A stretch of 64,000 nucleotides of DNA, from assembly GCF_009208105.1 (NCBI RefSeq), contig NZ_WFKL01000001.1:4836001-4900000 (forward strand), written 5' to 3'. The DNA comes from Rouxiella sp. S1S-2 (GTDB taxonomy: Bacteria; Pseudomonadota; Gammaproteobacteria; Enterobacterales; Enterobacteriaceae). Both the position numbers and the translations under genes were made by a program. Every line of letters begins with the position of its first letter. The first letter of the stretch is position 1. The notes below the pieces were generated by a model that worked only from the letters and a program-made list of their open reading frames with translations, was not told the origin of the DNA and made no database searches. Positions 45,850-62,811 of this stretch are shown in pieces.

Positions 45850-47412
45850 ATGCCTGTAATTACTCGGTTGATACTGCAAAATTTTAAAAAGTTTCCGCGC
45901 CTGGACCTGTTTTTCAATGCTGATCGAAACATATTCATCGGTGATAATGAATCGGGTAAAAGTAGCATCTTACTGGCTCTTGATTTGGTTTTGAGTGACA
46001 GTAGACATCGTGTTGAAACTCTAAGCGTTGAATCCCTTATTTCACAATCTGCGGTGGAGAATTTTCTGGCGGGTGAACGACGGGCAGATCTGCTACCAGT
46101 ACTTATCGCTGACGTCTTTCTTCATCAAGGTAACAATCCTGATCTCAATGGCCGACAGAATCTAGCTGGCATAGATGCCGATGGCCTCAGAATGCGAATT
46201 GCACCGATGCTTGACGAATATAGCGAGGACATTCGACAAGTTTTGCAGCAGGATCCGACAAATTTCCCTTTCGAATACTATGCGGTTAAATTCACAACTT
46301 TTTCTGGAAGCCATTTTGCGAGCTTCAGGCGCTACCTGCGGCATCTGCTTCTTGAAAACGCACGCATCGATAGTGATCATGCCGCATTAGACTATACTCG
46401 CACAGTTTATGGTGTGAATGTGCCTGTCGCGGAACGGTACCGCCTTGAGAACAGTTATCGTCAACAAAAAAATCTCTTCTGTAATCAGCAATTGTCCGCT
46501 GTTAACAGCACGCTGGAAGATTATCAGTTTGGTATCCGTTCGGGAGCTAAATCTGGACTCGAAGCTAACCTGGATATTACTGAAGGTGGGATCTCTATCC
46601 GTAATAGGGGTAAAGGCCGGCAATGCTTTATCAAAACGGAGTTTGCCCTACGAAGGCATCAGCAACAGGGTGAGCTTCATTCATTATTGCTTGAGGAGCC
46701 GGAAAACCATCTTAGTCACGTGAGTATGAAAAAGCTGGTTAATCAGCTTGCCGCAGAGCAACAGAAACAACTTTTCATCGCAACACATAGCAGCCATATT
46801 TCATCCCGTCTTGATCTGCGTAAAGCAATCCTCTTTGGGGAATCCCGACCCGTTTTATTAAATGAGCTTTCAGATGAAACGGCAGCTTTCTTTATGAAGG
46901 CACCAGATAATAATGTTCTTGAATTTGCTCTGGCGAGACGAGTATTACTGGTAGAAGGTGATGCCGAATATATCCTAATCGAGTCTTTTTACCGTCAGCT
47001 CTTCAATACCGCCCCTGAAGATGATGGTGTTCATATTATCGCTATTGGCGGTACTAGTTTCCGCCGTTATCTTGAATTGGCACTTTTACTGGGGAATCGA
47101 GTAGCTGCTTTACGAGACAACGATAGCAACTACCAACAGAATTGCTCCGAACGTTATGCTGATATTATCTGCGATCACATCAATGTTTTCGCCGATCACA
47201 ACGATGAGCGATCAACGTTTGAAATCTGTCTGTATCAGGACAATATGGCGTTATGTGAGCTGCTGTTTGGAGAAGGCCGACGAACATTGACAGTGCAAGA
47301 CTATATGCTGGCCAATAAGGCAGAAGCTGCATTTAAGCTGTTACAACATGATGGAGAAGAACTCTGTGTTCCTGACTACATTCAGGAGGCTCTGGCATGG
47401 CTAAGAGGGTGA
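45850..47412 (+). CDS. OLD-family ATPase/TOPRIM endonuclease (GajA-like)
   Basis: 520 residues from the ATG at 45850. The N-terminal ABC-type ATPase begins ITRLILQNFKKFPRLDL with Walker A GDNESGKSS (31-39). Walker B is LLLEEPENHLS and the H-loop THSSHISSRL. The C-terminal TOPRIM domain has VLLVEGDAEYILIESF (metal Glu) and LRDNDSN (Asp pair). This is the OLD architecture of GajA. It overlaps the next gene, a UvrD-like helicase, by 16 nt, which is the Gabija arrangement. GajA nicks phage DNA and is held in check by nucleotides, with GajB as partner. The island context supports defence. Confidence 0.87.
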   Translation: MPVITRLILQNFKKFPRLDLFFNADRNIFIGDNESGKSSILLALDLVLSDSRHRVETLSVESLISQSAVENFLAGERRADLLPVLIADVFLHQGNNPDLNGRQNLAGIDADGLRMRIAPMLDEYSEDIRQVLQQDPTNFPFEYYAVKFTTFSGSHFASFRRYLRHLLLENARIDSDHAALDYTRTVYGVNVPVAERYRLENSYRQQKNLFCNQQLSAVNSTLEDYQFGIRSGAKSGLEANLDITEGGISIRNRGKGRQCFIKTEFALRRHQQQGELHSLLLEEPENHLSHVSMKKLVNQLAAEQQKQLFIATHSSHISSRLDLRKAILFGESRPVLLNELSDETAAFFMKAPDNNVLEFALARRVLLVEGDAEYILIESFYRQLFNTAPEDDGVHIIAIGGTSFRRYLELALLLGNRVAALRDNDSNYQQNCSERYADIICDHINVFADHNDERSTFEICLYQDNMALCELLFGEGRRTLTVQDYMLANKAEAAFKLLQHDGEELCVPDYIQEALAWLRG

Positions 47413-48419
47413 TTTTTGCCGTTGCTGGCTCAGGTAAAACCACACTACTGATAGACAGACTCACGGTAAACAGTCGTACACTTATTCTGACGCACACCAT
47501 CAATAACGAGACACATCTGCGATCCAAGATCATAAGTTTGTTTGGGTTTATGCCTGAAGGAATTCGTGTAATGACTTGGTTTGAATTTCTTCACGGTTTC
47601 TGTTTTCGCCCTTTTCTCCAGGAACATTTGGCTTCTCGAGGCTTGAGTTTTTCCCAACCGCCACAGAGGATCCCACGAACTAATCGACTGCATTATCAGG
47701 ACAATCGTGGCCGCATATATCATCGGCGGCTTGCACAATTATTAATGGCTAGAGGTATGTTGCCGGATATATGCAATCGTCTTGAGCGATACTACGACGA
47801 ACTATTAGTCGATGAAGTACAGGATTTTGCTGGAAATGATTTTAATTTTTTATTAGCGCTTTGCGAGGCAGAAATGTCGGTCCTTTTTGCCGGGGATTTC
47901 TACCAGCATACCTTTGATACAAGCAGGGATGGCAATGTTAATTCCACGCTTCATGACGATATTAACCGATATGAAGCCCGCTTCACTGCTGCTGGAGTGA
48001 TGGTGGATCGTGATACACTCAGTAGAACGTGGCGTTGCTCAAGCACAGTATGTGAATTCATTACTGAGAGGCTTAATATACGCATTGATGCACATGACTT
48101 ACGTGAAACATCAATTGATATAGTAACCGAGACTGAGCATGTAGCCGCCTTACATGCAGACGATTCTGTCATTAAGCTTTTCTATAGTGAACACCATCGT
48201 TATGGTTGTTACTCTCTAAATTGGGGAGCCAGTAAAGGACTGGATCATTTTCAGGACGTATGCATTGTGATGGGTGCTACGCACTGGCGTCTTCTAAATA
48301 GATCGAATCTACAAACACTTCCACCTTCGTCACGCAATAAGCTTTATGTAGCTTGCTCCCGAGCTCGGGGAAACATTTATTTCGTTTCTGAAGCGAACTT
48401 CAGAAATTACAAAAGATGA
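47397..48419 (+). CDS. Compact UvrD-like SF1 helicase (GajB-like)
   Basis: 340 residues, shorter than the roughly 490 of the best-known GajB. The SF1 motifs are present: FAVAGSGKTTLL (Walker A, about 7-18), LLVDEVQDFAG (Walker B), VLFAGDFYQHTF (motif III), TLSRTWRCS (motif IV) and KLYVACSRARGNIYFVS (motif VI). GAGG in the GajA-like gene precedes the ATG. Coupled to the OLD nuclease gene, it should sense DNA ends or ssDNA made during phage attack, as proposed for GajB. The missing residues lie in the accessory domains, so helicase activity may be reduced to ATPase sensing. Confidence 0.83.
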   Translation: MAKRVIFAVAGSGKTTLLIDRLTVNSRTLILTHTINNETHLRSKIISLFGFMPEGIRVMTWFEFLHGFCFRPFLQEHLASRGLSFSQPPQRIPRTNRLHYQDNRGRIYHRRLAQLLMARGMLPDICNRLERYYDELLVDEVQDFAGNDFNFLLALCEAEMSVLFAGDFYQHTFDTSRDGNVNSTLHDDINRYEARFTAAGVMVDRDTLSRTWRCSSTVCEFITERLNIRIDAHDLRETSIDIVTETEHVAALHADDSVIKLFYSEHHRYGCYSLNWGASKGLDHFQDVCIVMGATHWRLLNRSNLQTLPPSSRNKLYVACSRARGNIYFVSEANFRNYKR

Positions 48420-48564
48420 AAAAACCATGGTAGCTAAGTGGCAGAAATTGTTCTGCCAAATAAGGACCAGGACACTAGCTGCCACAAACTTCGTTTCAAG
48501 TCATTACCTGAAACACAAATCTGTGTAAAATCAGAGCTAACCCAATTTCGTGGAGTGCCCTGCT

Positions 48565-51006
48565 ATGGCTGGCGTGAACAAAACGCACCTGACTGAAACG
48601 GATATCATCAGCAAATTTATCCTGCCTGCGGTTAAGGATGCTGGTTGGGATGATTTGGCGCAGATTCGCCAGGAAGTGAAACTGCGAGATGGTAAGATTG
48701 TGGTTCGCGGAAAGCTGGCCTCACGTATCAAAGTTAAGTCTGCCGATATCGTGCTGTATCACAAGCCTAACTTGCCATTGGCAGTTATCGAAGCCAAGGC
48801 TAACAAGCACGCCATCAGTAAAGGGATGCAGCAGGGGATGGACTACGCTAGCCTGCTCGATGTTCCCTTTGTATTTGCCTCCAACGGTGATGGGTTTATC
48901 TTCCACGATAAAACCAATCCACAGCAGCTCGAATCCGAAATTGCCCTAAGCGACTTCCCAACACCTGAACAGCTCTGGCAAAAATACTGTGTCTGGAAAG
49001 GGTTCACTCAGGAGCAGCTGCCCGTTATCAGTCAGGACTATTTTGACGACGGTAGCGGGAAAGCTCCCCGTTACTATCAGATGCAGGCGATTAACCGAAC
49101 GGTGGATGCCGTATCGGCAGGTAAGAACCGTATTCTGCTGGTCATGGCCACGGGTACGGGCAAAACGTATACCGCATTCCAGATAATCTGGCGGCTGTGG
49201 AAAGCCAAAAACAAAAAACGCATCCTCTTCCTCGCGGACCGCAATATTCTGGTCGATCAAACTAAAAATAACGATTTTCAACCTTTCGGTACGGCGATGA
49301 CTAAAGTCACCGGGCGTACCATCGATCCGGCCTATGAGGTGCATCTGGCGTTGTACCAGGCGATTACCGGACCGGAAGAGCATCAAAAAGCGTATAAGCA
49401 GGTGGCCCCGGATTTCTTTGACCTGATTGTGATTGACGAATGCCACCGCGGCAGCGCGTCTGAAGATTCTGCCTGGCGAGAGATTCTGGAGTATTTCGGT
49501 AGCGCCACTCAGGTCGGTCTGACGGCAACGCCAAAAGAAACGGAAGACGTCTCCAATATCGATTACTTCGGTGAGCCGGTTTACACCTATTCGCTGAAAG
49601 AGGGTATTGAAGACGGTTTCCTCGCCCCTTACAAAGTCGTGCGCGTTGATATTGACGTTGACGTCCAGGGCTGGCGGCCCGTCAAAGGTCAACTGGATAA
49701 ATACGGCGAAGAGATTGAAGACCGTATCTACAATCTGAAAGATTTTGATCGCACGCTGGTGATTGATGAGCGCACCATGCTGGTGGCGCAGACCATCACC
49801 GATTACCTGAAACGTACCAACCCGATGGATAAAACCATCGTTTTCTGCAACGACATCGATCACGCCGATCGAATGCGCCATGCGCTGGTGGTGCTCAACC
49901 CCGAGCAGGTGTTGAAGAACGAAAAGTACGTGATGAAAATCACCGGCGACGATGATATCGGCAAGGCGCAACTGGATAACTTTATCAATCCTAAAAAAGC
50001 CTACCCGGTTATCGCGACAACGTCAGAGTTGATGACCACCGGCGTTGATGCGCAGACCTGTAAGCTGGTGGTATTGGATCAAAACATTCAGTCGATGACC
50101 AAGTTTAAACAGATCATTGGGCGCGGCACGCGCATCAACGAAAAACACGGCAAGCTGTGGTTCACTATTCTCGATTTCAAAAAAGCGACCGAGCTGTTTG
50201 CCGACCCACGCTTTGATGGCCTGCCAGAAAAAGTGCTGGTGGTAAACCCCGGTGATATTTCTGACAAAGATTCAGACTTCAATGAACAACTGGATGCGGA
50301 AAATAACGCGGATGACGGCGATAATGATGCCAGTGAAGCGCGAGAAGACGTCTCTGACTATCAGGTTAATCGTGACAAGCAAGCGGGCAACGGTGAGTTC
50401 CATGACGATGATGAAAACAAAGTCCGCAAATTCTATGTGAATGGCGTGGATGTAAAAGTGCTGGCTAAGCGCGTTCAGTATTACGATTCTGATGGCAAAC
50501 TGGTGACTGAATCCTTCCAGGATTACACCCGTAAAACGATGCTCAAAGACAGCGAATACGCCTCACTGGATAGCTTCGTGCGCAAATGGCAGGATGCACC
50601 ACGCAAACAGGTCATCATCGAAGAGCTGGAACAACTGGGGATTCTGTGGGACGTGCTGGCCGAAGAGGTGGGTAAAGATCTCGACCCGTTTGATTTGCTC
50701 TGTCATGTGGTGTACGGTCAGCCGCCGTTAACCCGTCAGGAACGCGTGGCCAATGTGCGTAAGCGCAATTACTTCACTAAATACGCCGAGCCAGCACAGC
50801 AGGTGCTTAACACGTTGTTGGATAAATACGCCGATGAAGGTGTTCAGGAAATTGAGGATGTTCAGGTACTTAAACTGAAGCCGTTCGATACGCTGGGACG
50901 TCCGATCGAAATCATCAAAACACGCTTTGGTGACAAAAAGGCGTATGAGCAAGCCGTCAATGAACTGGAAAACGAAATCTACCAGTTACCGCCACGCTCA
51001 GCCTGA
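48565..51006 (+). CDS. hsdR: Type I restriction endonuclease subunit R (HsdR)
   Basis: 813 residues from the ATG at 48565 (GGAG 10 nt upstream); a GTG at 48550 is in frame. The PDDEXK nuclease motif lies in [10 protein letters not shown]...[11 protein letters not shown] (about 60-85). The DEAD-box translocase has [29 protein letters not shown] and a C-terminal half with QIIGRGTRI. Length and order R-M-S match the type IB (EcoAI/EcoEI-like) group. It cleaves unmethylated DNA far from the site after translocation. A terminator-like stem separates it from hsdM. Confidence 0.96.
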
Positions 51007-51022
51007 CAACCTATAAATATAT

Positions 51023-51061
51023 TGCCACTGGCCGCGTCTGCGACCGGTGGCATCCTTTTTT
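51023..51061 (+). terminator. Intrinsic-terminator-like stem between hsdR and hsdM
   Basis: TGCCACTGG and CCGGTGGCA pair (one G-U) around a 12-nt loop and are followed by TCCTTTTTT. The T-tract ends 17 nt before the hsdM ATG, leaving no room for a promoter after it. It may be a partial terminator or attenuator tuning R to M+S expression. Confidence 0.65.
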
Positions 51062-51078
51062 AAGTATGGAAAGAAAAC

Positions 51079-52551
51079 ATGTCAATTAGCTCAGTCATTA
51101 AATCCCTGCAGGACATCATGCGTAAAGACGCCGGTGTGGACGGCGATGCCCAGCGTCTGGGGCAGCTTTCATGGCTGCTGTTCCTGAAGATTTTTGATAC
51201 CCAGGAAGAAGAGCTGGAACTGGAGCAGGACGACTATCAGTTGCCGATTCCGCAGCGTTATTTATGGCGTAGCTGGGCGGCAAACAGCGAAGGCATCACC
51301 GGTGATGCGTTATTGGAGTTTGTGAACGACGACCTGTTCCCGACCCTGAAAAACCTCACCGCGCCGATCGATAAGAACCCGCGTGGCTTTGTGGTTAAAC
51401 AGGCGTTTAGTGATGCCTACAACTACATGAAGAACGGTACGCTGCTGCGCCAGGTGATCAACAAGCTCAATGAAATCGACTTCAGCAGCAGCCAGGAACG
51501 TCATCTGTTTGGCGATATCTACGAGCAGATCCTGCGCGACCTGCAAAGCGCCGGGAACGCGGGTGAGTTCTATACTCCGCGTGCGGTTACACGCTTTATG
51601 GTCAACCGCATCGATCCGAAGCTGGGCGAGTCGATTATGGACCCGGCGTGCGGTACTGGCGGCTTCCTTGCCTGTGCGTTTGACCATGTGAAAGACATTT
51701 ACGTCAAAACCACGGAAGACCACAAAACCCTGCAACAGCAGATTTATGGCGTAGAGAAAAAACAGCTTCCCCATCTGTTATGTACCACCAATATGCTGCT
51801 GCACGGTATTGAAGTACCGGTGCAAATTCGCCATGACAACACCCTCAACAAGCCGCTTTCCTCGTGGGATGAGCAGGTTGATGTGATTGTTACCAACCCA
51901 CCGTTTGGCGGCACCGAAGAAGACGGCATTGAGAAAAACTTCCCGGCAGAGATGCAGACCCGTGAAACCGCCGATCTGTTCCTGCAACTGATTATCGAAG
52001 TGCTGGCAGACAAAGGCCGCGCGGCGGTGGTGCTACCGGACGGTACGCTGTTTGGTGAAGGCGTAAAAACTAAAATCAAAAAACTGCTCACCGAAGAGTG
52101 CAACCTGCACACCATCGTGCGGTTGCCGAACGGCGTGTTTAACCCGTACACCGGTATCAAAACCAATATTCTGTTCTTCACCAAAGGTCAGCCAACCAAA
52201 GAGGTGTGGTTCTACGAGCACCCGTACCCGGACGGCGTAAAGAACTACAGTAAAACCAAGCCGATGAAGTTTGAAGAGTTCCAGGTGGAAATCGACTGGT
52301 GGGGTAACGAAGCCGATGGTTTTGCCAGCCGCGAAGAGAATAATCAGGCGTGGAAAGTCAGCATCGACAACATCATCGCTCGCAACTTCAACCTTGATAT
52401 CAAGAACCCGTATCAGGGCGAAACCATCAACCACGATCCGGATGAGCTGCTGGCGCAGTACCAGATGCAGCAGGCGGAAATCAGCGAGCTGCGTAACCAG
52501 TTGCGCGATATTCTTGGTGCAGCTCTGGCGGGCAGCAAGGAGGCAAACTGA
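51079..52551 (+). CDS. hsdM: Type I modification methyltransferase subunit M (HsdM)
   Basis: 490 residues, the type IB size (EcoAI HsdM is about 489). An N-terminal helical domain is followed by GEFYTPRAVTRFM, the SAM motif DPACGTGGFL and the N6-adenine catalytic motif NPPF in VTNPPFGGTEED. TGGAAAG precedes the ATG. The stop codon overlaps the hsdS start (TGATG). With HsdS it methylates adenines and, with HsdR added, restricts. Confidence 0.97.
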   Translation: MSISSVIKSLQDIMRKDAGVDGDAQRLGQLSWLLFLKIFDTQEEELELEQDDYQLPIPQRYLWRSWAANSEGITGDALLEFVNDDLFPTLKNLTAPIDKNPRGFVVKQAFSDAYNYMKNGTLLRQVINKLNEIDFSSSQERHLFGDIYEQILRDLQSAGNAGEFYTPRAVTRFMVNRIDPKLGESIMDPACGTGGFLACAFDHVKDIYVKTTEDHKTLQQQIYGVEKKQLPHLLCTTNMLLHGIEVPVQIRHDNTLNKPLSSWDEQVDVIVTNPPFGGTEEDGIEKNFPAEMQTRETADLFLQLIIEVLADKGRAAVVLPDGTLFGEGVKTKIKKLLTEECNLHTIVRLPNGVFNPYTGIKTNILFFTKGQPTKEVWFYEHPYPDGVKNYSKTKPMKFEEFQVEIDWWGNEADGFASREENNQAWKVSIDNIIARNFNLDIKNPYQGETINHDPDELLAQYQMQQAEISELRNQLRDILGAALAGSKEAN

Positions 52552-54311
52552 TGACCGTTGAGAAACTGATCACCGACCATATCGATATCTGGTCCTCTGC
52601 GCTGCAAACCCGCTCCACGGCCGGGCGCGGCAGTAACGGTAAAATCGACCTCTATGGCATTAAGAAACTTCGCGAGCTGATTCTGGAGCTGGCGGTGCGC
52701 GGCAAACTGGTGCCGCAGGACCCGAATGATGAACCAGCGTCTGAACTGTTAAAGCGTATTGCCGCAGAAAAAGCGGAGCTGGTGAAGCAGGGTAAAATTA
52801 AAAAGCAAAAGCCTCTGCCGGAAATTAGCGAGGATGAGAAGCCGTTTAAGTTGCCGAAGGGGTGGGAGTGGGTGAGGCTCATCGATATTATGGCTGATAT
52901 TCATTATGGATACACAGCTTCTGCGGATGAAACTAAAGAAGTAAAGTTACTGAGAATAACAGACATTCAAGATGATAAAGTTAATTGGGAAACGGTTCCC
53001 GGTTGCGACATCAGTGAAAAAATGGTTGAGCAATATAAGCTAAATAATAATGATATTGTTATTGCTCGTACAGGTGGGACTGTAGGAAAGTCATATTTGG
53101 TTGAGAATATGAATGTTCATTCAGTTTTTGCATCCTATTTAATAAGATTGAAATATCTTGGTCCTATGCAGGCTGGGTTTACAAAAGTATTTTTAGGCAG
53201 TCAGCTATATTGGAAGCAACTTTACGATGGAACGTCCGGTACGGGGCAGCCAAATGTAAATGGTAATACTTTGAAGGCAATAATATTACCTATAGCACCA
53301 ATTAATGAACAGCATAAAGTGATATCCAAAGTTGTTGAACTTATGTGCCTCTGCGACCAACTGGAGCAGCAATCCCTTTCCAGTCTGGACGCTCATCAGC
53401 AACTGGTGGAAACCCTGCTGGCGACGCTGACCGACAGCCAAAATGCCGAACAATTTGCTGAAAATTGGACGAGGATTAGTCAGCATTTCGAAACATTATT
53501 TACCACCGAAGCGAGTATCGATGCACTTAAACAAACCATTCTGCAACTGGCGGTGATGGGGAAACTGGTGCCGCAGGATCCAAACGACGAACCTGCGTCT
53601 GAGTTGCTTAAACGTATTGAGCTGGAAAAAGCACAACTGATGAAAGACGGTAAAATTAAAAAACAAAAAACGTTGCCGCTAGTGAGTGATGAAGAAAAAC
53701 CATTTGAATTACCTATGGGATGGGAGTGTATTCGACTTGGGGATTTAACCAGCAAAATGGGTTCTGGTAGTACACCTCGGGGCGGGCAAAGTGCATATGT
53801 TACCTCGGGGATCCCATTCCTTCGCTCCCAAAACGTGTGGAATGATGGTCTGCGTTTAGATGATGTAGTGTATATTGATGAAAATACACATTCAAAAATG
53901 GATGGAACAAAAGTTTTCCCTGGTGATGTGCTATTAAATATTACGGGAGCTTCTTTAGGCCGCACCCTAATATTTCCTGAAAATATCAAAGAAGCAAACG
54001 TTAGCCAGCATGTGACAATTGTTCGCTTATTGCTAAGGGAGTTGGCACCATTTGTCCATTTGGCTATTAGATCCCCTATTGTTCAGAACTTGATATGGGG
54101 CAGGCAAGTTGGGATGGCAATTGAAGGCCTTAGTAAAAAAACATTGGAGTTATTTGAATTTCCAATTCCTCCGTTATCAGAACAACATCGTATTGTTGCC
54201 AAAGCCAATGGGCTATTTATTATCTGCGAACAACTCAAATCCCGCCTGCAATCCGTCCAGCAAACCCAGCTCTATCTAGCGGATGCACTTACCGACGCAG
54301 CATTAAACTAA
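52551..54311 (+). CDS. hsdS: Type I specificity subunit S (HsdS)
   Basis: 586 residues, type IB size. Two target-recognition domains lie at about 105-265 and 390-555, each entered through a long conserved repeat. The segment GKLVPQDPNDEPASELLKR occurs twice (from residue 51 and again from about 335), followed both times by GKIKKQK..LP and a KPF.LP.GWE.. entry motif. Coiled-coil spacers such as LCDQLEQQSLSSLDAHQQLVE close each half. The TRD-coding parts are visibly more AT-rich than the repeats, the usual sign of domain exchange. The recognised sequence cannot be predicted by reading. Confidence 0.95.
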   Translation: MTVEKLITDHIDIWSSALQTRSTAGRGSNGKIDLYGIKKLRELILELAVRGKLVPQDPNDEPASELLKRIAAEKAELVKQGKIKKQKPLPEISEDEKPFKLPKGWEWVRLIDIMADIHYGYTASADETKEVKLLRITDIQDDKVNWETVPGCDISEKMVEQYKLNNNDIVIARTGGTVGKSYLVENMNVHSVFASYLIRLKYLGPMQAGFTKVFLGSQLYWKQLYDGTSGTGQPNVNGNTLKAIILPIAPINEQHKVISKVVELMCLCDQLEQQSLSSLDAHQQLVETLLATLTDSQNAEQFAENWTRISQHFETLFTTEASIDALKQTILQLAVMGKLVPQDPNDEPASELLKRIELEKAQLMKDGKIKKQKTLPLVSDEEKPFELPMGWECIRLGDLTSKMGSGSTPRGGQSAYVTSGIPFLRSQNVWNDGLRLDDVVYIDENTHSKMDGTKVFPGDVLLNITGASLGRTLIFPENIKEANVSQHVTIVRLLLRELAPFVHLAIRSPIVQNLIWGRQVGMAIEGLSKKTLELFEFPIPPLSEQHRIVAKANGLFIICEQLKSRLQSVQQTQLYLADALTDAALN

Positions 54312-54321
54312 GGAACAGACG

Positions 54322-55419
54322 ATGCCGGTTCATCATGCAATCTGGCGGATAGGGGAGAATCCCCAGCCGCTAACCAGCAGCAAACTTGCCAGCGAGCAAC
54401 TGTTGGAGAAGATGATTTTAAATGATCCCACTATTCTCTCCGACCAGTGGATGATTATCGGTCATCAGGAAAATACGCTCGATAAAGGGCGTATCGACCT
54501 GCTGGCGATTGCGCCGGATGCTTCGCTGATCCTGATTGAACTTAAGCGCGACCGCACGCCGCGTGAGGTGGTGGCTCAGGCGCTGGATTACGCCTCTTGG
54601 GTGGACGACTTATCCACCGAGCGTCTGTCGCAGATTTACGAGAAATTCTCCGGTGGTGGCAATTTGGGTGAGGCGTTTAAACAACGCTTCAATACTGAAC
54701 TGGAAGAAGAGTCGCTCAATCAGTCGCATCAAATCATTATCGTGGCAGCTGAGCTGGATCCCTCCACCGAGCGTATTGTCGACTATCTGAGCAAGAACGG
54801 CATCTCGATTAACGTTCTGTTCTTCAAGGTGTTCCAGCACGGTGACGAACAGTTCTTAAGCCGCACCTGGCTTATCGACCCAAGCGAAACGCAAACCAAT
54901 GCCGCACAGGCCACCGCTACAAGTGCCAATGCGAAGGAACCCTGGAACGGAGAGTTTTACGTCTCGTTTGGTGATCCGCAAAGTCGAGTCTGGGAAGAGG
55001 CACGTCGCTACGGGTTTATCAGCGCGGGTGGCGGAAGCTGGTACAGCCAGACGTTAAAACAGCTTCAGCCTGGCAACCGTGTATGGGTAAGAATCCCGAC
55101 AACGGGTTACGTCGGCGTCGGCATTGTTCAGAGCGCCGTTGAGCCTGCCAGTAGCTTCACCATCAACACTGACGACGGCGAAAAGCGGGCGATGGATCTG
55201 CTTAAGTACAGCGATCTCTATCACCGGAATGCGGATGACCCCGACAAGTCCGAGTATTTTGTCCCCGTTAAGTGGCTGGAAACCCGCAGTGAACATGAGG
55301 CGGTGAACGAGGTCGGATTCTTCGGTAATCAAAATACGGTCTGCAAACCTACAACTCCAAAATGGCGACACACTATTGAAAAATTAAAGCGATATTTCGG
55401 AAATTGGAATATAAATTAG
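54322..55419 (+). CDS. PDDEXK (DUF91/NucS-like) nuclease-domain protein linked to the RM operon
   Basis: 365 residues, starting 10 bp after hsdS with AAGGAACAGACG upstream. The nuclease core (about 35-80) shows GRIDLLAIAPDASLILIELKRD, the D-X(n)-E-X-K pattern of the PDDEXK fold, with the NucS-like QALDYASWV that follows. The C-terminal part (about 215-365) is a separate domain with WNGEFYVSFGD and several aromatic residues. It is probably cotranscribed with hsdMS. It may assist or complement restriction; its own activity is not established. Confidence 0.83.
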   Translation: MPVHHAIWRIGENPQPLTSSKLASEQLLEKMILNDPTILSDQWMIIGHQENTLDKGRIDLLAIAPDASLILIELKRDRTPREVVAQALDYASWVDDLSTERLSQIYEKFSGGGNLGEAFKQRFNTELEEESLNQSHQIIIVAAELDPSTERIVDYLSKNGISINVLFFKVFQHGDEQFLSRTWLIDPSETQTNAAQATATSANAKEPWNGEFYVSFGDPQSRVWEEARRYGFISAGGGSWYSQTLKQLQPGNRVWVRIPTTGYVGVGIVQSAVEPASSFTINTDDGEKRAMDLLKYSDLYHRNADDPDKSEYFVPVKWLETRSEHEAVNEVGFFGNQNTVCKPTTPKWRHTIEKLKRYFGNWNIN

Positions 55420-55459
55420 CAAATTGAATTAAATAATATCATTAACGATGAGGGTTGGT

Positions 55460-56275
55460 ATGGTTATACCAGAAGATGGACTCTTAGAGGTAGCTTGGTA
55501 CTTTTCAAAGTTTGGCAAAAAAAATCCTCCATCTTTACTTGGGGTCGAAAAATGGAAAGATGCTGCCTCTCTTTTTTATCCTCGATTTGGTGAAGGTAAG
55601 ACTTCAGAAGAGTTTTATAATAGTCTTAAAAATCATCGAGATCGTTTTGATTCATGGCTCAGTTCTACTCGAACAGGATGGCGGAATAAAGATGGAACCC
55701 CACGAAACTTGCCAGTGGCTTCAAAAATAGTCATGCAACGAATGAACATGTTGCCGAACTCAATTATTGAAAAATTGATTATATCTTATTTATCGATAAA
55801 TCCTTTCGAGAAAGTCCAGCAAGATTTAGCACCGATACTTCAAGATACAAGCATTGATGATACAACTAGAGAACAGTTAATTTCAGCCAGACTTGGCCAA
55901 GGTCTTTTCAGGAAAGAATGTCTTAAACGTTATCCTGCATGTCCGCTAACTGATATAACATTTGAACCATTACTGAGAGCAAGCCACATAAAACCTTGGT
56001 CTGCATGCCACAACGGCACTGAACGACTCGACCCATTTAATGGAATTATATTAGCTGCACATGTTGACGTGCTATTTGATCAAGGATGGATATCTTTTTC
56101 CAACAATGGCCAGGTTTTATTAAGTAATGATATTGATAGAGCCTTAATTAAAAAGCTGCAACTACCAGAAAAGATTAAATCGTTCCATATCAAATCAATT
56201 GAGTATCTGAAATGGCATCGCGAGAAAATTCTGAGAAAAAAAGAAACATCCCAGAAGAAAGATAAATTTAAGTGA
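55460..56275 (+). CDS. HNH endonuclease-domain protein
   Basis: 271 residues from the ATG at 55460 (GAGGG 5 nt upstream); another ATG at 55448 lacks a ribosome site. The C-terminal HNH_2-type module has CPLTDI, LLRASHIKPWSAC, RLDPFNGIILAAHVDVLFD and QGWISF, the pattern of HNH nucleases found beside restriction systems. The first 150 residues are a separate helical domain that I do not recognise. The gene is more AT-rich than hsdRMS, so it may have joined the operon later. Confidence 0.85.
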   Translation: MVIPEDGLLEVAWYFSKFGKKNPPSLLGVEKWKDAASLFYPRFGEGKTSEEFYNSLKNHRDRFDSWLSSTRTGWRNKDGTPRNLPVASKIVMQRMNMLPNSIIEKLIISYLSINPFEKVQQDLAPILQDTSIDDTTREQLISARLGQGLFRKECLKRYPACPLTDITFEPLLRASHIKPWSACHNGTERLDPFNGIILAAHVDVLFDQGWISFSNNGQVLLSNDIDRALIKKLQLPEKIKSFHIKSIEYLKWHREKILRKKETSQKKDKFK

Positions 56276-56480
56276 ACAAAGAATAAAAAATTAACAACAT
56301 GTTACTAACACTATCGTTATGGTCATTTATATAGACCATTACGACGTAACCACAATCAATTTAATCGCCTAACCCACTCCGGCTCATCGAGACCAACTCT
56401 TGAAAGACTTGAACTATATTCCTCAGCTCGCAAAGAATCGTAAACCAGCATGCCAATGAGATAACTCTGAGGAAGCGATA

Positions 56481-56995
56481 ATGAGTTGGTTAGCCGAAGA
56501 AGAACGTCTATTTAGGACTTATGAGAGATGTTTTGTTCGTAATCGATTGCTTCAAGGATTTGGAGCTAACGGTGACAACATTGGTGAATTTGTTAATTTC
56601 TCATGAAGTGTTCAGAATCGAAGAAAATCAGGAGTTGGTTTTGCCTTTGAAAACCATTTAGGCCATTTATTCAAACTACATGATTTAAAGTTTGAAAAAA
56701 GCTCATCAAAAAATACAACAGAAAAAAAATTGAAACCTGACGTCTTTTCCCCCTCATTTGAGGCATGCCATGATCAAAATTTTGATTCAGAAAATTGTTC
56801 TTACCCGGTGCAAAAATAACATGTAAGGATCGTTGGCGACAAGTATTAGCAGAAGGAGACCGCATTACAACCAAACACTTGATCACTATTCAGCCTTGTA
56901 TAAACAAGACGCAACTTACAGAGATGAAAAATAAATCGATCCAGCCAATTGTACCAGAGCCTGTCTGGGCAACATATCCTATTGAATATCATTAA
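56481..56995 (+). pseudogene. Broken EcoRII-C-type restriction endonuclease gene
   Basis: ATG 56481 (GAGGAAGCGATA upstream) opens MSWLAEEERLFRTYER and runs 41 codons to an in-frame TGA (56604-56606). Past the stop the same frame continues SVQNRRKSGVGFAFENHLGH, then LKPDVFSPSFEACHDQNFD: the conserved RRKS.G..FENH...PD.. nuclease block of EcoRII-C endonucleases. A one-base shift near 56795 then restores LPGAKITCKDRWRQVLAEGD and KHLITIQ to a stop at 56995. So at least one nonsense mutation and one frameshift disable it. No matching cytosine methyltransferase gene is in the window, consistent with loss of the nuclease. Confidence 0.82.
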
Positions 56996-57091
56996 GAACT
57001 ACTAAGCCTAAAGGAGTTCATACAGCTACTTAAAAAAACATGGTTGAGTAAGGGGGAAGAGCCCCCCAAACGAGTGGTTAGTTTTTTTCAG

Positions 57092-58507
57092 TTATTTTCC
57101 TTTTGTTGAATTTTTATTTCTAAAATCCCCAGAAGATGATTTTAATTTTTTACTGCTAGAAGGTACTCTATTTTTATCTTCTATAATATTAAAAACCTGT
57201 TCCTGTAATTTATTGGATAAATTAAGAAAGTGAAAAACGGCATCTTCAAGAGCTCTCTCTCGTAAGCTGATATCGTTCCTCTTACTATATTCTTGCTCAG
57301 ATACCCCCCCCCCTAAACGTATATGTAACGTGGCCCCAGGGACAACTTCTACAGATAAAGTCCGAGGTAACATTTTAGGTAGATCATTTAATAGTTCGGA
57401 GTCGTTAGACACATCTAATAACCAAGAAAATTCTAACCACGATACATCAGCAGGTGATACATCACTTATAATCAAGGAAGGCATAATCAATCTTTCAGCC
57501 CCTTTAACTACTCTTAACCATGAAAAATCCCATGCTTTACTTCCTACTAACGCAGCTATTATGCCAAACCATAAAAAAACAATAGGAAAACTCTTCCCAA
57601 TTTTATTTAATAGGAAAAGGTGTGAAGTACTTCTGCCTACTAAAAATGCCGCTGCAGCAATTAAAGGACTCACATCATTGGCTACATCCTCTGATGTTAT
57701 ATTAGACAAATGATTTGAAATATTATTAAATGCAATAACTCGCTCCTCAATAGAATCACTTCTCATCAAGGTTAAAAGTTTTTTAATTTCATATACAACA
57801 AAAGAATCTTTATTAGAATCAATGTTATTATTGATGATTTCATTCGCGAATTTAAATACCGATTCGTAAACATCACTTTCATAAAAACTTATTGCCTTGA
57901 AGCTCCTCAAAAAATACAAAGCTCTATCTAATTGTTCAACTGAAACCGAGCGTTTCAGGAAACGATTATCTCTCGCTATTGCGCTTAGTCTTTTTTGGCA
58001 TACAGTTAATAACTCATCACTTCCATGATTAAAAATAACCCTAGCCATTGGTAGAGTATAACAACTTGACAACCTAGATAATGCCATATTTTTTAGTTCT
58101 ATATTACTATCAGAGATAGCCAACGCTTCTCCTACTGCTAAGCAAGCTAATTCTTCACTATTAATTTCTTCAGAGAGCAAATATTCCCCACGGGAGATTA
58201 TTTGTTTATAATCACTATAAAGCATAACTCTTGCATATTGGCTTAAAGGAAATAATTCCTCAGCGTATACTCTAAGCCAAGATAAAATATCCTTGAAATA
58301 AGCATCATCTATTACCAGCATGCATATCTTATGTTTTGAATCAATAGATTGTGATTCGACTGCTCCGACTAACACCTTTCCAGAATGCACATCAAAATCT
58401 GATATTTTATTTTTCCAAAAAAACATATCCAACTGCTTAATATTAAATATCACATCAAACAGTTCCTCTTTACTAACAGAAATCCAATTAATTTTTTTAT
58501 CTTTCAT
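57092..58507 (-). CDS. Uncharacterised protein, third gene of a kinase-helicase operon
   Basis: 471 residues; AAGGTGAC lies upstream of the ATG and 8 bp separate it from the helicase gene. Not recognised. The N-terminal 100 residues look alpha/beta (ISVSKEELFDVIFNIKQLDMFFW, ICMLVIDDAYFKDILSWL). A helical middle part follows. The segment FPIVFLWFGIIAALVGSKAWDFSW (about 306-329), preceded by VSPLIAAAAFLVG, is hydrophobic enough for one membrane helix but could be buried. The tail is polar and basic (KKLKSSSGDFRNKN). It is AT-rich like the two genes before it. As the only non-enzymatic member it might be the effector or the sensor of the set; that is a guess. Confidence 0.75.
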   Translation of the reverse strand: MKDKKINWISVSKEELFDVIFNIKQLDMFFWKNKISDFDVHSGKVLVGAVESQSIDSKHKICMLVIDDAYFKDILSWLRVYAEELFPLSQYARVMLYSDYKQIISRGEYLLSEEINSEELACLAVGEALAISDSNIELKNMALSRLSSCYTLPMARVIFNHGSDELLTVCQKRLSAIARDNRFLKRSVSVEQLDRALYFLRSFKAISFYESDVYESVFKFANEIINNNIDSNKDSFVVYEIKKLLTLMRSDSIEERVIAFNNISNHLSNITSEDVANDVSPLIAAAAFLVGRSTSHLFLLNKIGKSFPIVFLWFGIIAALVGSKAWDFSWLRVVKGAERLIMPSLIISDVSPADVSWLEFSWLLDVSNDSELLNDLPKMLPRTLSVEVVPGATLHIRLGGGVSEQEYSKRNDISLRERALEDAVFHFLNLSNKLQEQVFNIIEDKNRVPSSSKKLKSSSGDFRNKNSTKGK

Positions 58508-58515
58508 AAGTCACC

Positions 58516-59664
58516 TTAAAACAGATCATCGATAGTAAAGGCTTGTGGTTCAGAAAATGCATTTTCAAATTTTCTATTTGTATGCTCGGTTCTATATACA
58601 TTTAATGATGTTTTTGCACGCGTTATTGCCGTATATCCAATCCGGCTGCGATTTAATGGATGACTTGCCAAATCTTCGGCATTAAAAATATGTACAGCTC
58701 TAAATTCAGTTCCTTTTGCTGCATGAATAGTCATAACGTGAATTCGTTTTTCAGAAGTAAAACTAGCTTCTTCATCAACACCATGGAAAACTACTAGCTC
58801 ATCTAAATCAGAAGCTTTGAAGCGCTCTTTTAAATCAACTAAGGTTTCCCTCTTACCACAAAAAATACCTATATTATCATCTTTAAAGGCATCTAATTGA
58901 ATTTTTATGGATTCAATCATTTTATCAAATTGTAGTTTTTTACTGGCGCAGACGTGCAAATTAGCACTAGATTCACCTTGTGTTCTGATATTATAATTAG
59001 ATGTTGCCTCAAGGCTTTCTGTTGGATTATCTAATGGACATAATCTATCTGCCGCACGAGCTATTTTTTGCCCTATGCGAAAGTGACGATTTAATCTATG
59101 CGGGGTTAATTTCAATTTATCAATGACTTCCAATCCATTTCTTCTGTATATGCCTTGATTGTCGTCCCCGCATATACAGATATTATCACTAAGACACAGT
59201 AATGCTTCTAATTCACCTGACGTTAAATCTTGTGCTTCATCAACAAAAATAGCGCTATAAATTCTCTTACCGGGTAGTTTATTATTTGCTTCAATCAACA
59301 TTTCAAGAATTTGAGTTCTTCCCTCATCATCAAAATCAGTGCCTTTCGGTATAGCTCGTTCTCCTAAGTGCTCCAAAATATGAGAACAAGCCCAAGAATG
59401 AAAAGTTTTAATTTGATCTGCATTTATCAATCCTAATGAATTAATACCACTCTTAATAAAATCTGATAGCGCTCTTGTATAGGTTAAAATGAGTATATTC
59501 CGCTCGCCTATCCCTGCTGTATACTGAGCCCTAAGTAGCAATAAATTAGTCTTACCTGAACCCGGTGGTCCTATAAGGGCATATCTTCCTTTAGCAGGGA
59601 GTGTAATAAAATTTTGTTGATCCTCATCTAATTCATCTCGAGAACGCCACCAGCTACTCTTCAT
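58516..59664 (-). CDS. UvrD-like SF1 helicase of a kinase-helicase operon
   Basis: 382 residues, overlapping the kinase gene by 11 nt. SF1A motifs are complete: a Q-motif-like LDEDQQNFI, Walker A GPPGSGKTN (32-40), LTYTRAL (Ia), Walker B VDEAQDL (141-147), GDDNQGIYRRNG (III), LNRHFRIGQKIA (IV), MTIHAAKGTEF (V) and AITRAKTSLNVYRTE (VI). It is compact, without the full 1B/2B inserts of UvrD. Compact helicases of this type pair with nucleases in several defence systems; here the partners are a kinase and an unknown protein. Ribosome site GAGGCGGG lies in the kinase gene. Confidence 0.9.
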   Translation of the reverse strand: MKSSWWRSRDELDEDQQNFITLPAKGRYALIGPPGSGKTNLLLLRAQYTAGIGERNILILTYTRALSDFIKSGINSLGLINADQIKTFHSWACSHILEHLGERAIPKGTDFDDEGRTQILEMLIEANNKLPGKRIYSAIFVDEAQDLTSGELEALLCLSDNICICGDDNQGIYRRNGLEVIDKLKLTPHRLNRHFRIGQKIARAADRLCPLDNPTESLEATSNYNIRTQGESSANLHVCASKKLQFDKMIESIKIQLDAFKDDNIGIFCGKRETLVDLKERFKASDLDELVVFHGVDEEASFTSEKRIHVMTIHAAKGTEFRAVHIFNAEDLASHPLNRSRIGYTAITRAKTSLNVYRTEHTNRKFENAFSEPQAFTIDDLF

Positions 59665-61072
59665 TATTACCCGCCTCTTTATGCAAGTCTATATCAGTTA
59701 ATATTTCCGCATTCCCATATTCATTCTCAACTAAGTCTAAACCAACCATCACATAATCAACGATGTCATTGGACAATATTTTTATCACACTGTCGACATC
59801 GGTATTTAAAATGGTTTCCAAGCATGGTTTCATCTTTATCCCTTCGAAGTACCTTTCTTTTTGGAATGGCTCTATTCTGGCCCCAATGGAGATGGTTGCT
59901 CTATTGCTGTATAAGCCTTCTCCCCAGACAAAATGGATAGAACAAGCTATTGCATACTTATTTTCATAGGAGAAAAAATAATTTATTTGATGACTATCCC
60001 CAGTTGTAGGCATTACTACTGGGAGTTGTTTTCCACAAACATCTATTAATTCTATTCTTATTTTCTCACTTATTCCACGGATGTAATTATTTCTTTCAAA
60101 AACTATTTTTGTATAATCATTATTTTGCGTGATGTTTGTTTTTTGTGATAATCTATTCCTTAAGGATATAAGAGGGTCAGTTGCGTTATTAAAATAGAAA
60201 TCCTCCCATTTAACAAGAGAAGTTCTTATATCAATATCCTTACTTAAACACCTAAGTGCTAATGCTTTTTCCCTAGCCAACCTATTTACATTAACATCAA
60301 TAAAAGAAGGTGTTTTAGTTAACACTGCTCTTGCTACTAACCATCTATTTTTAACCAACATCTCTTCATTAAATATTGGTTCCTTGTTTATTAAATCATG
60401 CAGAACGGCACCAACCTGATAAATATTAAGACCTCGCCAAAGTTTTTCTGTCGGCTCATCCAATCTGAAAAGATATTCAGGTGAACTATATTGTGCGGTC
60501 GCTAAAAATGGTCGCGTACGTCCATTATCGGTAATACCATCTTCATTTTTATTATCGAATTCCCTGATGACACCAAGGTCAAGAAGCTTTAATTTTTTAA
60601 AATCATCTGAAACATGTATATTTTCTGGTTTGATATCACGATGAACAATATTAAGTGACTCTAGATATCTCACGGCATCGACTAATTGCTTGATTAAAAA
60701 TCTCACAGCGTCATCTGGCACCTTATCTAAAACTTTAGCCAATTGAGGCCATGAAAGAAACTCCATCTCAATAATAGCGGTTCCTTCAGCTTCGGCAGCG
60801 TAGTAAGTTTGAATAAGATGTTCACAATGATGATCGATAAGTTTTTGTTGTGTTAATAATCGCCTTTTCTCTGCTAAATTATCATTTCCAACAAAAAATT
60901 TTGGATCAAAAATCTTAATAGCTCTTATGTCACCATTTCGGTTAACTTTGAAAACAGCAGCAGAACCACCTGCATCAATAAAATCAACTGAATTATATCC
61001 ACCAGTTACATCCAGATAATTTTTTAATCGCTCGGTAACGTCACGAATTACATTATCATCCAATGCTGGCAT
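59654..61072 (-). CDS. Ser/Thr protein kinase, first gene of a kinase-helicase operon
   Basis: 472 residues; AAGGAGAAAAA precedes the ATG. The kinase domain (about 20-285) has a glycine loop DAGGSAAVFKV (33-43), the ATP Lys53 in AIKIFD, HRDIKPEN (144-151) with catalytic Asp146, DLG (165-167) in place of DFG, and an SPE (197-199) for APE. So it is likely active and of the eukaryote-like PKN family. The C-terminal part (about 300-472) is a separate domain unknown to me, possibly beta-rich, with no membrane helix. First of three tightly packed AT-rich genes next to the integrase. Kinases in defence islands usually switch on an effector on infection, which is the inference here. Confidence 0.9.
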   Translation of the reverse strand: MPALDDNVIRDVTERLKNYLDVTGGYNSVDFIDAGGSAAVFKVNRNGDIRAIKIFDPKFFVGNDNLAEKRRLLTQQKLIDHHCEHLIQTYYAAEAEGTAIIEMEFLSWPQLAKVLDKVPDDAVRFLIKQLVDAVRYLESLNIVHRDIKPENIHVSDDFKKLKLLDLGVIREFDNKNEDGITDNGRTRPFLATAQYSSPEYLFRLDEPTEKLWRGLNIYQVGAVLHDLINKEPIFNEEMLVKNRWLVARAVLTKTPSFIDVNVNRLAREKALALRCLSKDIDIRTSLVKWEDFYFNNATDPLISLRNRLSQKTNITQNNDYTKIVFERNNYIRGISEKIRIELIDVCGKQLPVVMPTTGDSHQINYFFSYENKYAIACSIHFVWGEGLYSNRATISIGARIEPFQKERYFEGIKMKPCLETILNTDVDSVIKILSNDIVDYVMVGLDLVENEYGNAEILTDIDLHKEAGNNEE

Positions 61073-61273
61073 TTTTTCTCCTTGGGGTTAATCAATGCTA
61101 TCGTATGCAACTTTTGTGGTTAAGTACTACACAATATGTTGAAAGGCATTCTATATCTATAAGTGAATAGTCATATCAAAACAAAAAAATTAAGGCAAGC
61201 CATCTCTTTCACAGACAGACAAACCTTAATTTAAAGCATGAAAAACAATGAGTTAAAATACGCCGCGTCAAAA

Positions 61274-62527
61274 TCATCTTGATCTAGCAAAATCAAACGG
61301 GCTAATCCCCTTCTCCCGATTAATATCAAGATAATCCGCCCACCATTGCAACATCAATCGTCTCTCATCCAAATGTTCCGCCTTATGAATGTAAGCTGCT
61401 CGCACTGAGTTGCGTTCCATATGGCTCATCTGCCGTTCAACTGCATCCCTCGACCACAACCCAGATTCAATCAACGAGCTACATGCCATAGTCCTGAAGC
61501 CATGCCCGCAAACCTCCACCTTAGTGTCATACCCCATAACACGCAGCGCCTTGTTCACCGTGTTTTCACTCATCGGTTTACGAGGGTTATGATCGCCAAC
61601 GAAAACAAAATCACGCTCGCCACTAAGCTTGTGAACCTGTTTCAGGATTTCTAATGCCTGGCGAGACAGCGGTACTAAATGAGGCGTACGCATTTTCGAG
61701 CCACGCTGTGAATGCTTCACTCCTTCAATAGCTTCTCGTTCTGCCGGTATTGTCCACATTGCCGTTTCAAAATCGATCTCGGACCAACGCGCAAAGCGCA
61801 ATTCACTAGAACGAATAAAGATTAATAACGTGAGCTCAACAGCCAGACGGGTCATTTGGCGTCCCGTGTAACCGTCGATTCGACGAAGTAATTCAGGTAA
61901 GCGTTTCAAATCAAGCGCTGGACGGTGGACACGGTTACTGGAAGCGACAGCACCAGCCATTTCTTGAGCTGGGTTGTAATCAATCAAACCACTTTGCACT
62001 GCATAACGCATAATCGCATTAGTACGCTGCTGAAGACGTGAAGCAACTTCAAGTCGCCCTGTAGCCTCAACTACTTTAATAGGTACAAGGAGATCGCGTG
62101 TGCTGAAACTATCAATACTCCGCTTCCCAATTGCAGGGAACAGATTGTCTTCCAGGCTCTTCAGCACCCTCCGACTGTGTTCCTCTGACCATTTATTGTT
62201 AGTTGCATGCCACTCCCTGGCAACTGACTCAAAGGTAATGACCTCTTTCGCCTTCTCCTCCTTTACAGCACGCTTATGCTCGCGAGGATCGATACCAGCA
62301 GCAACCAGCTTTCTGGACTCGTCCCTCTTCTGCCTCGCATCGGCTAACGAAGTTTCAGGGTAAACCCCAAACGCCATCAGGTGCTGATTACCACCAAAGC
62401 GAAAACGGAACCGCCAGTATTTTGAGCCGTTGGGATGAATAAGCAAAAACATGCCATCCCCATCGACAAGGGTGTACTCCTTTTCCTGCGGTTTTGCAGA
62501 ACGCACTTTGATATCTGTCAGAGCCAT
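61274..62527 (-). CDS. P4-type tyrosine integrase
   Basis: 417 residues, AAGGAGAACTTTT before the ATG. The N-terminal DUF4102 arm-binding domain is MALTDIKVRSAKPQEKEYTL then LLIHPNGSKYWRFRFRF. The catalytic domain has Arg in FIRSSELRFARW, His/Arg in GHGFRTMACSSL, His in QMSHMERN and the Tyr in AAYIHKAEHLDERR. It lies 199 bp from the 3' end of tRNA-Leu(CAA) and reads away from it, the standard layout for P4/intB-like integrases at leuX. No recombination-directionality gene other than alpA is seen. Confidence 0.96.
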   Translation of the reverse strand: MALTDIKVRSAKPQEKEYTLVDGDGMFLLIHPNGSKYWRFRFRFGGNQHLMAFGVYPETSLADARQKRDESRKLVAAGIDPREHKRAVKEEKAKEVITFESVAREWHATNNKWSEEHSRRVLKSLEDNLFPAIGKRSIDSFSTRDLLVPIKVVEATGRLEVASRLQQRTNAIMRYAVQSGLIDYNPAQEMAGAVASSNRVHRPALDLKRLPELLRRIDGYTGRQMTRLAVELTLLIFIRSSELRFARWSEIDFETAMWTIPAEREAIEGVKHSQRGSKMRTPHLVPLSRQALEILKQVHKLSGERDFVFVGDHNPRKPMSENTVNKALRVMGYDTKVEVCGHGFRTMACSSLIESGLWSRDAVERQMSHMERNSVRAAYIHKAEHLDERRLMLQWWADYLDINREKGISPFDFARSR

Positions 62528-62718: not shown

Positions 62719-62743
62719 CATACTAATGGTGCCGAAGGCCGGA
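62719..62743. repeat. Near attachment site (attL) at the tRNA-Leu 3' end
   Basis: CATACTAATGGTGCCGAAGG followed by CCGGA, matching 35492-35515 with one extra C. It spans the last 17 nt of the tRNA gene and 8 nt beyond. Strand exchange within tRNA 3' ends is the norm for P4-type integrases. Confidence 0.75.
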
Positions 62744-62811
62744 ATCGAACCGGCACGCCTTGCGGCGGTTGATTTTGAATCAACTGCGTCTACCGATTTC
62801 GCCACTTCGGC
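62727..62811 (-). tRNA. leuX: tRNA-Leu (CAA)
   Basis: An 85-nt class II tRNA on the minus strand, with acceptor GCCGAAG/CTTCGGC, anticodon stem-loop GTTGATTCAAAATCAAC giving CAA, a long variable arm, GGTTCGATTCC T-loop and encoded CCA. It corresponds to E. coli leuX, a well-known island integration site. The island reconstitutes its 3' end. Confidence 0.96.

What the first reader, a model, noticed from the sequence alone, without database searches (positions are those of the whole stretch)
57092..61072. Kinase / SF1 helicase / unknown-protein operon: candidate undescribed defence system
Seen: three AT-rich minus-strand genes with an 11-nt overlap and an 8-nt gap encode, in order, a complete Ser/Thr kinase with an extra C-terminal domain, a compact helicase with all SF1A motifs, and a 471-residue protein I cannot place. 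They lie between an RM locus and the integrase of a leuX island. Known: kinases occur in BREX (PglW), Stk2 and Mokosh, and UvrD-like helicases in Gabija; I do not recall a described system with this kinase plus UvrD pair and third gene. Inference: the kinase senses infection and acts through the helicase or the orphan protein.
Basis: partly seen in the sequence, partly recalled or inferred. Interest (0 to 1): 0.85.

Follow-up and report, generated by a model that had tools for sequence, protein, structure and literature searches.

The report
Kinase-helicase-orphan protein candidate defence operon
Three neighbouring bacterial genes (a protein kinase, a small DNA helicase and a protein of unknown type) form a conserved, travelling unit that sits where related islands carry known virus-defence genes, so it is probably a bacterial immune system that has not been described yet.

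Summary
Observation confirmed to the base: kinase 59654-61072, compact SF1A/UvrD-like helicase 58516-59664, 471-aa orphan g3 57092-58507, all minus strand. g3 matches nothing in Pfam, NCBIfam, PADLOC or PHROGs and nothing convincing in PDB sequences, yet has at least 184 homologues. Of 25 g3 loci fetched, 22 show kinase-helicase-g3 in this order; 3 are cut by contig ends. A remote second clade (3 plasmid loci, two near-identical) keeps all three genes (g3 profiles align at 98.4%, 366 columns). The operon fills an exchangeable slot (about 56425-61282) of a leuX island; in an E. coli sister island that slot holds RT_UG5-nitrilase and beta/cll-like genes. Neighbours elsewhere include Hachiman, Gabija, Qat, Pycsar and DRT genes. 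No library or paper I could search names this trio. Best reading: an undescribed three-gene anti-phage or anti-plasmid system, with helicase as DNA sensor/motor, kinase as switch, g3 as DNA/replisome partner or effector. Defence is likely; the mechanism is inferred and unassayed. Most g3 outside the window's own branch of clade 1 carry a clamp-binding-like tail peptide; the window's copy lacks it.

The parts
59654..61072 (-). Ser/Thr protein kinase (472 aa): kinase domain about residues 25-292 plus a C-terminal domain (about 300-472) without known relatives
   Evidence: PF00069 93.7 bits; catalytic residues invariant in 20 of 20; C-terminal domain without PDB sequence match
58516..59664 (-). 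Compact SF1A/UvrD-like helicase (382 aa)
   Evidence: PF00580, PF13538; motifs invariant in 20 of 20; PDB relatives include PcrA, UvrD and Rep
57092..58507 (-). g3, orphan family protein (471 aa) with a basic, probably disordered C-terminal tail
   Evidence: 184 homologues; no family match; 20 invariant residues in 121 sequences; tail net charge +6 in the last 30 aa. Disorder is inferred from composition
61073..61273 (.). Intergenic region upstream of the kinase; must hold the operon promoter if the three genes are co-transcribed. No sigma-70-like site on the minus strand was found here
56425..61282 (.). Exchangeable cargo slot of the leuX island; this operon is its main content here
61274..62527 (-). 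Tyrosine integrase of the island
   Evidence: E. coli homologue annotated as tyrosine-type recombinase/integrase next to tRNA-Leu
62727..62811 (-). tRNA-Leu(caa), leuX attachment gene
48550..56275 (+). Shared island scaffold: EcoAI-type type I RM (hsdR, hsdM, hsdS), PDC-S11 nuclease-like gene, HNH gene

Best explanation
The operon is an undescribed three-gene defence system against phages or other mobile DNA. SHOWN: the kinase-helicase-g3 order is conserved in two diverged clades, almost wholly in Pseudomonadota; the enzymes keep their catalytic residues; the unit is transferred horizontally; it sits in an exchangeable cargo slot that holds defence genes in a sister island, and its neighbours elsewhere are enriched in defence genes. 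INFERRED: the helicase loads on and moves along exposed DNA made during foreign replication or recombination and is the sensor/motor. g3, which has a basic tail and in most clade-1 homologues a clamp-binding-like peptide, holds the complex at replicating DNA and is effector or adaptor. The kinase is the switch: once the DNA-bound complex forms, it phosphorylates g3, the helicase or a host target and turns a resting complex into one that blocks replication or stops the cell.
Against: No phage assay was found or run. No effector motif was recognised in g3, so the effector is unknown; g3 was not modelled. The clamp-like tail peptide is absent from the window's own g3 and from all 10 rows of its branch, and its second position is rarely aliphatic as the quoted consensus asks (9 of 106 rows with Q first). 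The system is rare: apart from the window's own genome, 0 of 397 phylum genomes had g3 and 0 of 294 family genomes the helicase. Of ten large neighbours scanned singly only 2 matched PADLOC at 1e-25, and the controls too held defence-type genes.
Confidence: 0.6

Rival explanations
1. Same defence role, other wiring: helicase plus g3 form the DNA sensor and the kinase is the effector, shutting the cell down by phosphorylating host proteins (abortive infection). (The odds of this list overlap and do not sum to 1.)
For: The kinase is complete by sequence and no effector motif was found in g3 or in the Pfam scan of 46 clade-2 g3. Kinases matching PD-T4-6 models are filed as defence genes in PADLOC.
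Against: g3 is the fastest-evolving of the three (26-80% identity against 45-91% for the helicase and 39-87% for the kinase), which suits the part that meets phage factors or varies its target; nothing identifies a host substrate.
Confidence: 0.3
2. Not defence: a DNA-repair or replication-stress module, or an addiction module that keeps the island in place, in which a kinase regulates a helicase.
For: UvrD-like helicases act in repair (recalled), and the g3 tail peptide resembles clamp-binding motifs such as that of RecB. A DNA-damage-activated kinase, CapK, regulates immune operons (passages of PMC13373217), so damage sensing and defence are not exclusive.
Against: Rare, patchy, transferred between genera and placed among defence cargo, unlike housekeeping repair.
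Confidence: 0.15
3. A variant of Gabija or another named helicase system whose nuclease has diverged beyond recognition.
For: The helicase matches GajB models (best 72.6 bits) and a Gabija pair lies in the same island.
Against: g3 matches no GajA/OLD/TOPRIM model; the island's other helicase, the GajB-like one, scores 163.7 bits against a GajB model to which this one scores 45.2; Gabija has no kinase (recalled).
Confidence: 0.03
4. Clamp-guided replisome surveillance: in most of clade 1, g3 docks on the beta sliding clamp by its tail peptide and the kinase/helicase then acts on forks with abnormal clamp traffic. (A refinement of the best explanation.)
For: Q..[LFM].[LF] in 93 of 121 tails (93 of 111 outside the window's branch) against a shuffle mean of 2.1 and maximum of 7; five control patterns give 0-6. 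With the last 62 residues searched, 91 of 96 matches start in one alignment column. Consensus Q-phi-x-[L/M]-x-[F/L] quoted in PMC13254535 (passages).
Against: Position 2 is Q, K or R in 100 of 121 rows, not aliphatic. Clade 2 shows 7 of 46, within the shuffle range (mean 2.1, max 9). The window's own branch (10 rows) lacks the peptide. The rows are related, so they are not independent events.
Confidence: 0.2

Closest known systems
Gabija (GajA/GajB)
   Same: UvrD-like helicase in a small defence operon; GajB senses DNA termini (passages of PMC10952713)
   Different: No GajA/OLD nuclease; has a kinase and g3; in a weakly supported tree both kinase-linked helicase clades fall together, apart from the island's GajB
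Mokosh
   Same: A protein-kinase region (the MkoA model matches the kinase domain, E 6e-10) beside an SF1 helicase (recalled) in one defence system
   Different: Mokosh has PLD and, in type I, NERD domains (passages); neither is found here, and here the genes are separate with a new third family
PD-T4-6 / Stk2-type kinases
   Same: Kinase domain; best PADLOC match PD-T4-6, 84 bits, residues 23-283 only
   Different: Those are stand-alone kinases (recalled); here the kinase has another C-terminal domain and two fixed partners
BREX type 2 (PglW)
   Same: Kinase in a defence operon that also has a helicase (passages of PMC12839542)
   Different: No PglX or PglZ among the three proteins; PglW kinase model far below its cut-off (26.1 of 990 bits)
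Hachiman (HamA/HamB)
   Same: Logic of a sensor helicase releasing an effector (start of abstracts); genes annotated DUF1837 and DEAD/DEAH helicase lie beside the clade-2 operon in R. leguminosarum
   Different: DEAD-box helicase and DUF1837 nuclease; no kinase

Membership tests
Gabija | GajA OLD-family ATPase/TOPRIM nuclease next to the helicase | tested here: not met
   g3 has no PADLOC or Pfam match; no AAA_15 or OLD-TOPRIM in the kinase
Gabija | UvrD-like helicase GajB | tested here: inconclusive
   matches GajB models at up to 72.6 bits but C3a187 better (78.5)
Mokosh | PLD-like nuclease (and NERD in type I) | tested here: not met
   no PLD or NERD Pfam match in the three proteins
Mokosh | kinase plus SF1 helicase | tested here: met
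   both present, as separate genes; that this defines Mokosh type I is partly recalled
BREX/Pgl | PglZ and PglX with PglW | tested here: not met
   none among the three proteins; PglW model 26.1 of 990 bits
Helicase+DUF2290 | DUF2290 partner | tested here: not met
   no Pfam match in g3
PD-T4-6 / Stk2 | single kinase gene with its own full-length profile | tested here: not met
   in the listed best 25 of 34 PADLOC matches none reaches beyond residue 284; fixed partners in 22 of 25 loci, the rest cut
New three-gene system (this one) | kinase, compact helicase and g3 co-occur in fixed order | tested here: met
   22 of 25 clade-1 loci, 3 cut; clade 2 3 of 3, two near-identical
New three-gene system (this one) | location in defence islands or cargo slots | tested here: met
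New three-gene system (this one) | protects against phage or plasmid | not testable with these tools
   needs an assay

The most novel reading that the evidence does not exclude
The trio is a kinase-gated surveillance machine of the replication fork: g3 is the founding member of a new protein family that reads the sliding clamp or replisome through a tail peptide (lost or replaced in the window's own branch), the compact helicase probes the exposed DNA, and kinase signalling converts abnormal fork traffic into an immune response.
Probability: 0.15. Interest if true: 0.82.

Novelty: new variant of a known kind. Interest (0 to 1): 0.6.

Why it matters
It adds a compact, conserved and testable three-gene candidate immune system with a wholly uncharacterised protein family (184 clade-1 and 60 clade-2 homologues found). 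It would show protein phosphorylation coupled to an SF1A DNA helicase in bacterial immunity, and the tail peptide of the clade-1 relatives makes a concrete, cheap test of whether the system reads the replication machinery.

Tried and rejected
Structure prediction of g3 (A4) and kinase (A3) was never accepted, so no fold search was run. PDB sequence searches with g3 profiles gave only chance-level matches (best E 0.058, Nup93; 0.34). Pfam scan of 46 clade-2 g3: IMPDH in 5 of 46 (best E 4.4e-4) and three single matches; judged chance. One entry (P0284) is named HDOD domain-containing by UniRef; no HDOD match appeared in that scan. Kinase C-terminal domain: best PDB match E 1.5; similarity to clade 2 beyond the kinase domain was not shown. 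Plasmid and phage scans for clade-1 g3, phage scan for the helicase and E. coli DNA scans for the operon: no match. Viral-contig scan for clade 2: none. Burkholderiales scan with the clade-2 profile: 0 of 280, with no known positive among them, so it shows nothing. leuX 3' end repeat (attR): not found. Hsp70-helicase loci (L032, L080) were considered as a third clade and rejected: L032's third gene is not homologous to g3 (0.3%; 0.1%), and no g3 was found in L080. The N-terminal QLDMF of the window's g3 (residues 25-29) fits a clamp-binding consensus, but among the 16 rows shown it occurs only in P0003-P0006, which are 93-100% identical to the window's g3: treated as probable chance. Literature: 10 searches answered, 8 on the system or its parts, one on the Hsp70 pair, one on clamp motifs. 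Judged from titles, starts of abstracts and passages of 7 opened papers (PMC13092281, PMC12839542, PMC13254535, PMC8649781, PMC13373217, PMC10952713, PMC11090510; passages only), none describes a kinase + UvrD-like helicase + orphan trio.
Full report
WHAT IS THERE. GC is 34.1% against 47.2% for the window. The kinase domain is clear (PF00069, 93.7 bits), and so is the helicase (PF00580, PF13538). g3 has no match in Pfam, NCBIfam, PADLOC or PHROGs. The kinase's last ~170 residues and g3 have no convincing PDB sequence relative.

THE FAMILY IS REAL. g3 has 184 homologues at E <= 1e-3 (120 listed; only the 7996 candidates sharing most words were scored, so this is a lower bound), from 98% to about 30% identical. 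Close ones come from records named Klebsiella oxytoca (98%), Providencia (94%) and Citrobacter portucalensis (85%), so the gene has moved between genera recently. In 121 aligned sequences 20 columns are invariant. In 20 aligned kinases and 20 helicases all the catalytic residues I checked are invariant, so both enzymes look to be kept active.

THE THREE GENES ARE ONE UNIT. A g3 profile found 22 loci in genome contigs and 3 in viral contigs. tblastn of the three proteins shows kinase-helicase-g3 in this order in 22 of 25. The remaining 3 are cut by a contig end inside the helicase (L025) or g3 (L021, L022). There is no counter-example. L021 and L023 come from one MAG and may be two halves of one locus. 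One locus (L005) is a 6.4-kb contig of a MAG labelled Bacillota; the named carriers are otherwise Pseudomonadota. A viral contig found by the helicase (L033) has the kinase upstream, in two pieces by tblastn, and ends 17 bases after the helicase match. The reverse test used the helicase profile in three orders (399, 293 and 299 genomes). It also found one distant match (E 3e-27), which lies next to an Hsp70 gene without g3 (L080). Distance matrices of the three proteins over 19 loci (window included) correlate at 0.84, 0.79 and 0.86, with 0 of 2000 permutations reaching these.

A SECOND, REMOTE CLADE. The helicase finds three plasmid loci at 28-31% identity beside a kinase: Cupriavidus pMTS3 and two near-identical R. 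leguminosarum plasmid loci. Each has a third ORF of about 460 aa; in Cupriavidus it is annotated only as a shorter ORF. Its own family has 60 homologues at E <= 1e-5, and the two g3 profiles align at 98.4% probability over 366 columns; single clade-2 sequences against the clade-1 profile score lower (85% and 7%). The system therefore has at least two diverged forms. The kinase domains align strongly, but similarity of the kinase C-terminal domains between clades was not shown.

NEIGHBOURS ELSEWHERE. From 21 loci I took 120 flanking ORFs of 200-900 aa (28 of the 148 first collected were dropped for length above 900 aa or distance beyond 4.8 kb). They match 38 PADLOC models at 1e-70; the 25 listed include HamA/HamB, GajA/GajB, PycC/PycTIR, QatA/QatC, RT_UG17 and C3a187. 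120 control ORFs, sampled from those of up to 900 aa among 176 in 16 stretches of eight carrier genomes, match 6 (PDC-S06, TRIP13, an oligonucleotide cyclase, ZorE2). At 1e-25 the counts are 107 and 15. Models overlap, so these are not gene counts. Nine of the 16 control stretches lie on contigs that also carry the system, more than 15 kb away, and the controls hold some defence-type genes, so the contrast is if anything understated. Of ten large neighbours scanned singly, 2 had a match at 1e-25 (C3a187, QatA): many neighbours are not known defence genes. A Pfam scan of the same 120 ORFs also shows ordinary genes such as gyrB, dnaN and dnaA.

RARITY. g3: 1 of 398 phylum genomes, the window's own, and 1 of 20 relatives, again its own. 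Helicase at E <= 1e-30: 1 of 295 family genomes, its own. The operon is not found in the held E. coli genomes at DNA level, nor clade-1 g3 in the plasmid and phage collections by tblastn; records near the window's own genome may be left out there. This is a patchy accessory distribution.

HOW IT MAY WORK. The helicase is a minimal SF1A motor; its PDB relatives include PcrA, UvrD and Rep. Helicases are the sensors in Hachiman (start of abstract) and Gabija (passages). The kinase is complete. g3 ends in a basic tail (median net charge +4 in the last 30 residues of 121 rows, +6 in the window's copy). In 93 of 121 clade-1 sequences the tail holds Q..[LFM].[LF] (composition shuffles: mean 2.1, maximum 7). 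With the last 62 residues searched, 94 rows give 96 matches, of which 91 start in one alignment column, at a median of 28 residues from the end. The sequences are related, so these are not independent events, but the peptide is kept while the rest of the tail drifts. It resembles the beta-clamp-binding consensus Q-phi-x-[L/M]-x-[F/L] quoted in PMC13254535 (passages). Against this: position 2 is Q, K or R in 100 of 121 rows (aliphatic in 9 of the 106 with Q first); position 4 is F in 30 of 121; clade 2 is at shuffle level (7 of 46); and the window's own branch (10 rows, P0003-P0012; the named ones are Enterobacterales) lacks it. I therefore treat clamp docking as a rival reading with modest weight, not as the mechanism. 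My preferred model is helicase as DNA sensor/motor, g3 as DNA- or replisome-bound partner/effector and kinase as switch; every functional step is inference. The odds given for the rivals overlap, as two of them are other wirings of the same defence role.

KNOWN OR NEW. Gabija, Mokosh, BREX/Pgl, Helicase+DUF2290 and stand-alone kinases each fail a tested defining feature (membership table). Ten literature searches found no such trio (list in Tried and rejected); DefensePredictor (PMC13092281, passages) has no occurrence of 'helicase' or 'UvrD' in its main text. Supplements and preprint servers were not searchable, so prior mention there is possible. I rate it a new variant of a known kind: a new multi-gene defence candidate made of familiar enzyme types plus one new protein family.

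LIMITS. No structure could be predicted. E-values of hhalign pairwise runs are not database E-values. In the helicase tree both kinase-linked clades fall together, apart from the Hsp70-linked, GajB and C3a187 helicases, only with weak support (84/66) and long branches.

Noticed in passing
A second possible helicase-based system with a chaperone in the place of the kinase; L032's third gene is not related to g3 and no g3 was found in L080.
   Followed up: partly
45784-48419 +: A Gabija-like pair with a 542-aa GajA (325 bits) and a very small GajB (340 aa, 164 bits) lies just left of the RM operon, outside the stretch shared with E. coli NN5.
   Followed up: partly
54322-56275 +: PDC-S11 nuclease-like gene (554 bits) and an HNH gene follow hsdS and belong to the scaffold shared with E. 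coli NN5.
   Followed up: partly
L083 10682-19701 and L084 12797-19441: In sister leuX islands of E. coli the slot of this operon holds RT_UG5-nitrilase, capP-like, beta and cll-like genes, or a cluster of a 991-aa ATP-binding protein, response regulator, hypothetical gene and cytosine methyltransferase. The latter cluster may be another undescribed system.
   Followed up: no
58516-58560 - (helicase C-terminus): Most of the 20 aligned helicases end in a hydrophobic-x-x-L-[FL] tail (such as IDDLF), and the Hsp70-linked helicase of L032 also ends in IDDLF: a possible docking peptide.
   Followed up: no
L029 9149-10522 +: The Cupriavidus third gene is annotated only as 9794-10522; the full ORF starts with TTG and overlaps the end of the helicase gene.
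   Followed up: yes
57092-58507 -, residues 25-29 of g3: The window's g3 has QLDMF near its N-terminus, a good clamp-binding consensus match, seen in only 4 of the 16 rows shown (all 93% or more identical to it); probably chance.
   Followed up: partly
30650-32791 -: A 713-aa ORF left of the island that by eye resembles an OvoA/EgtB-type sulfoxide synthase fused to a methyltransferase (recalled, not searched).
   Followed up: no
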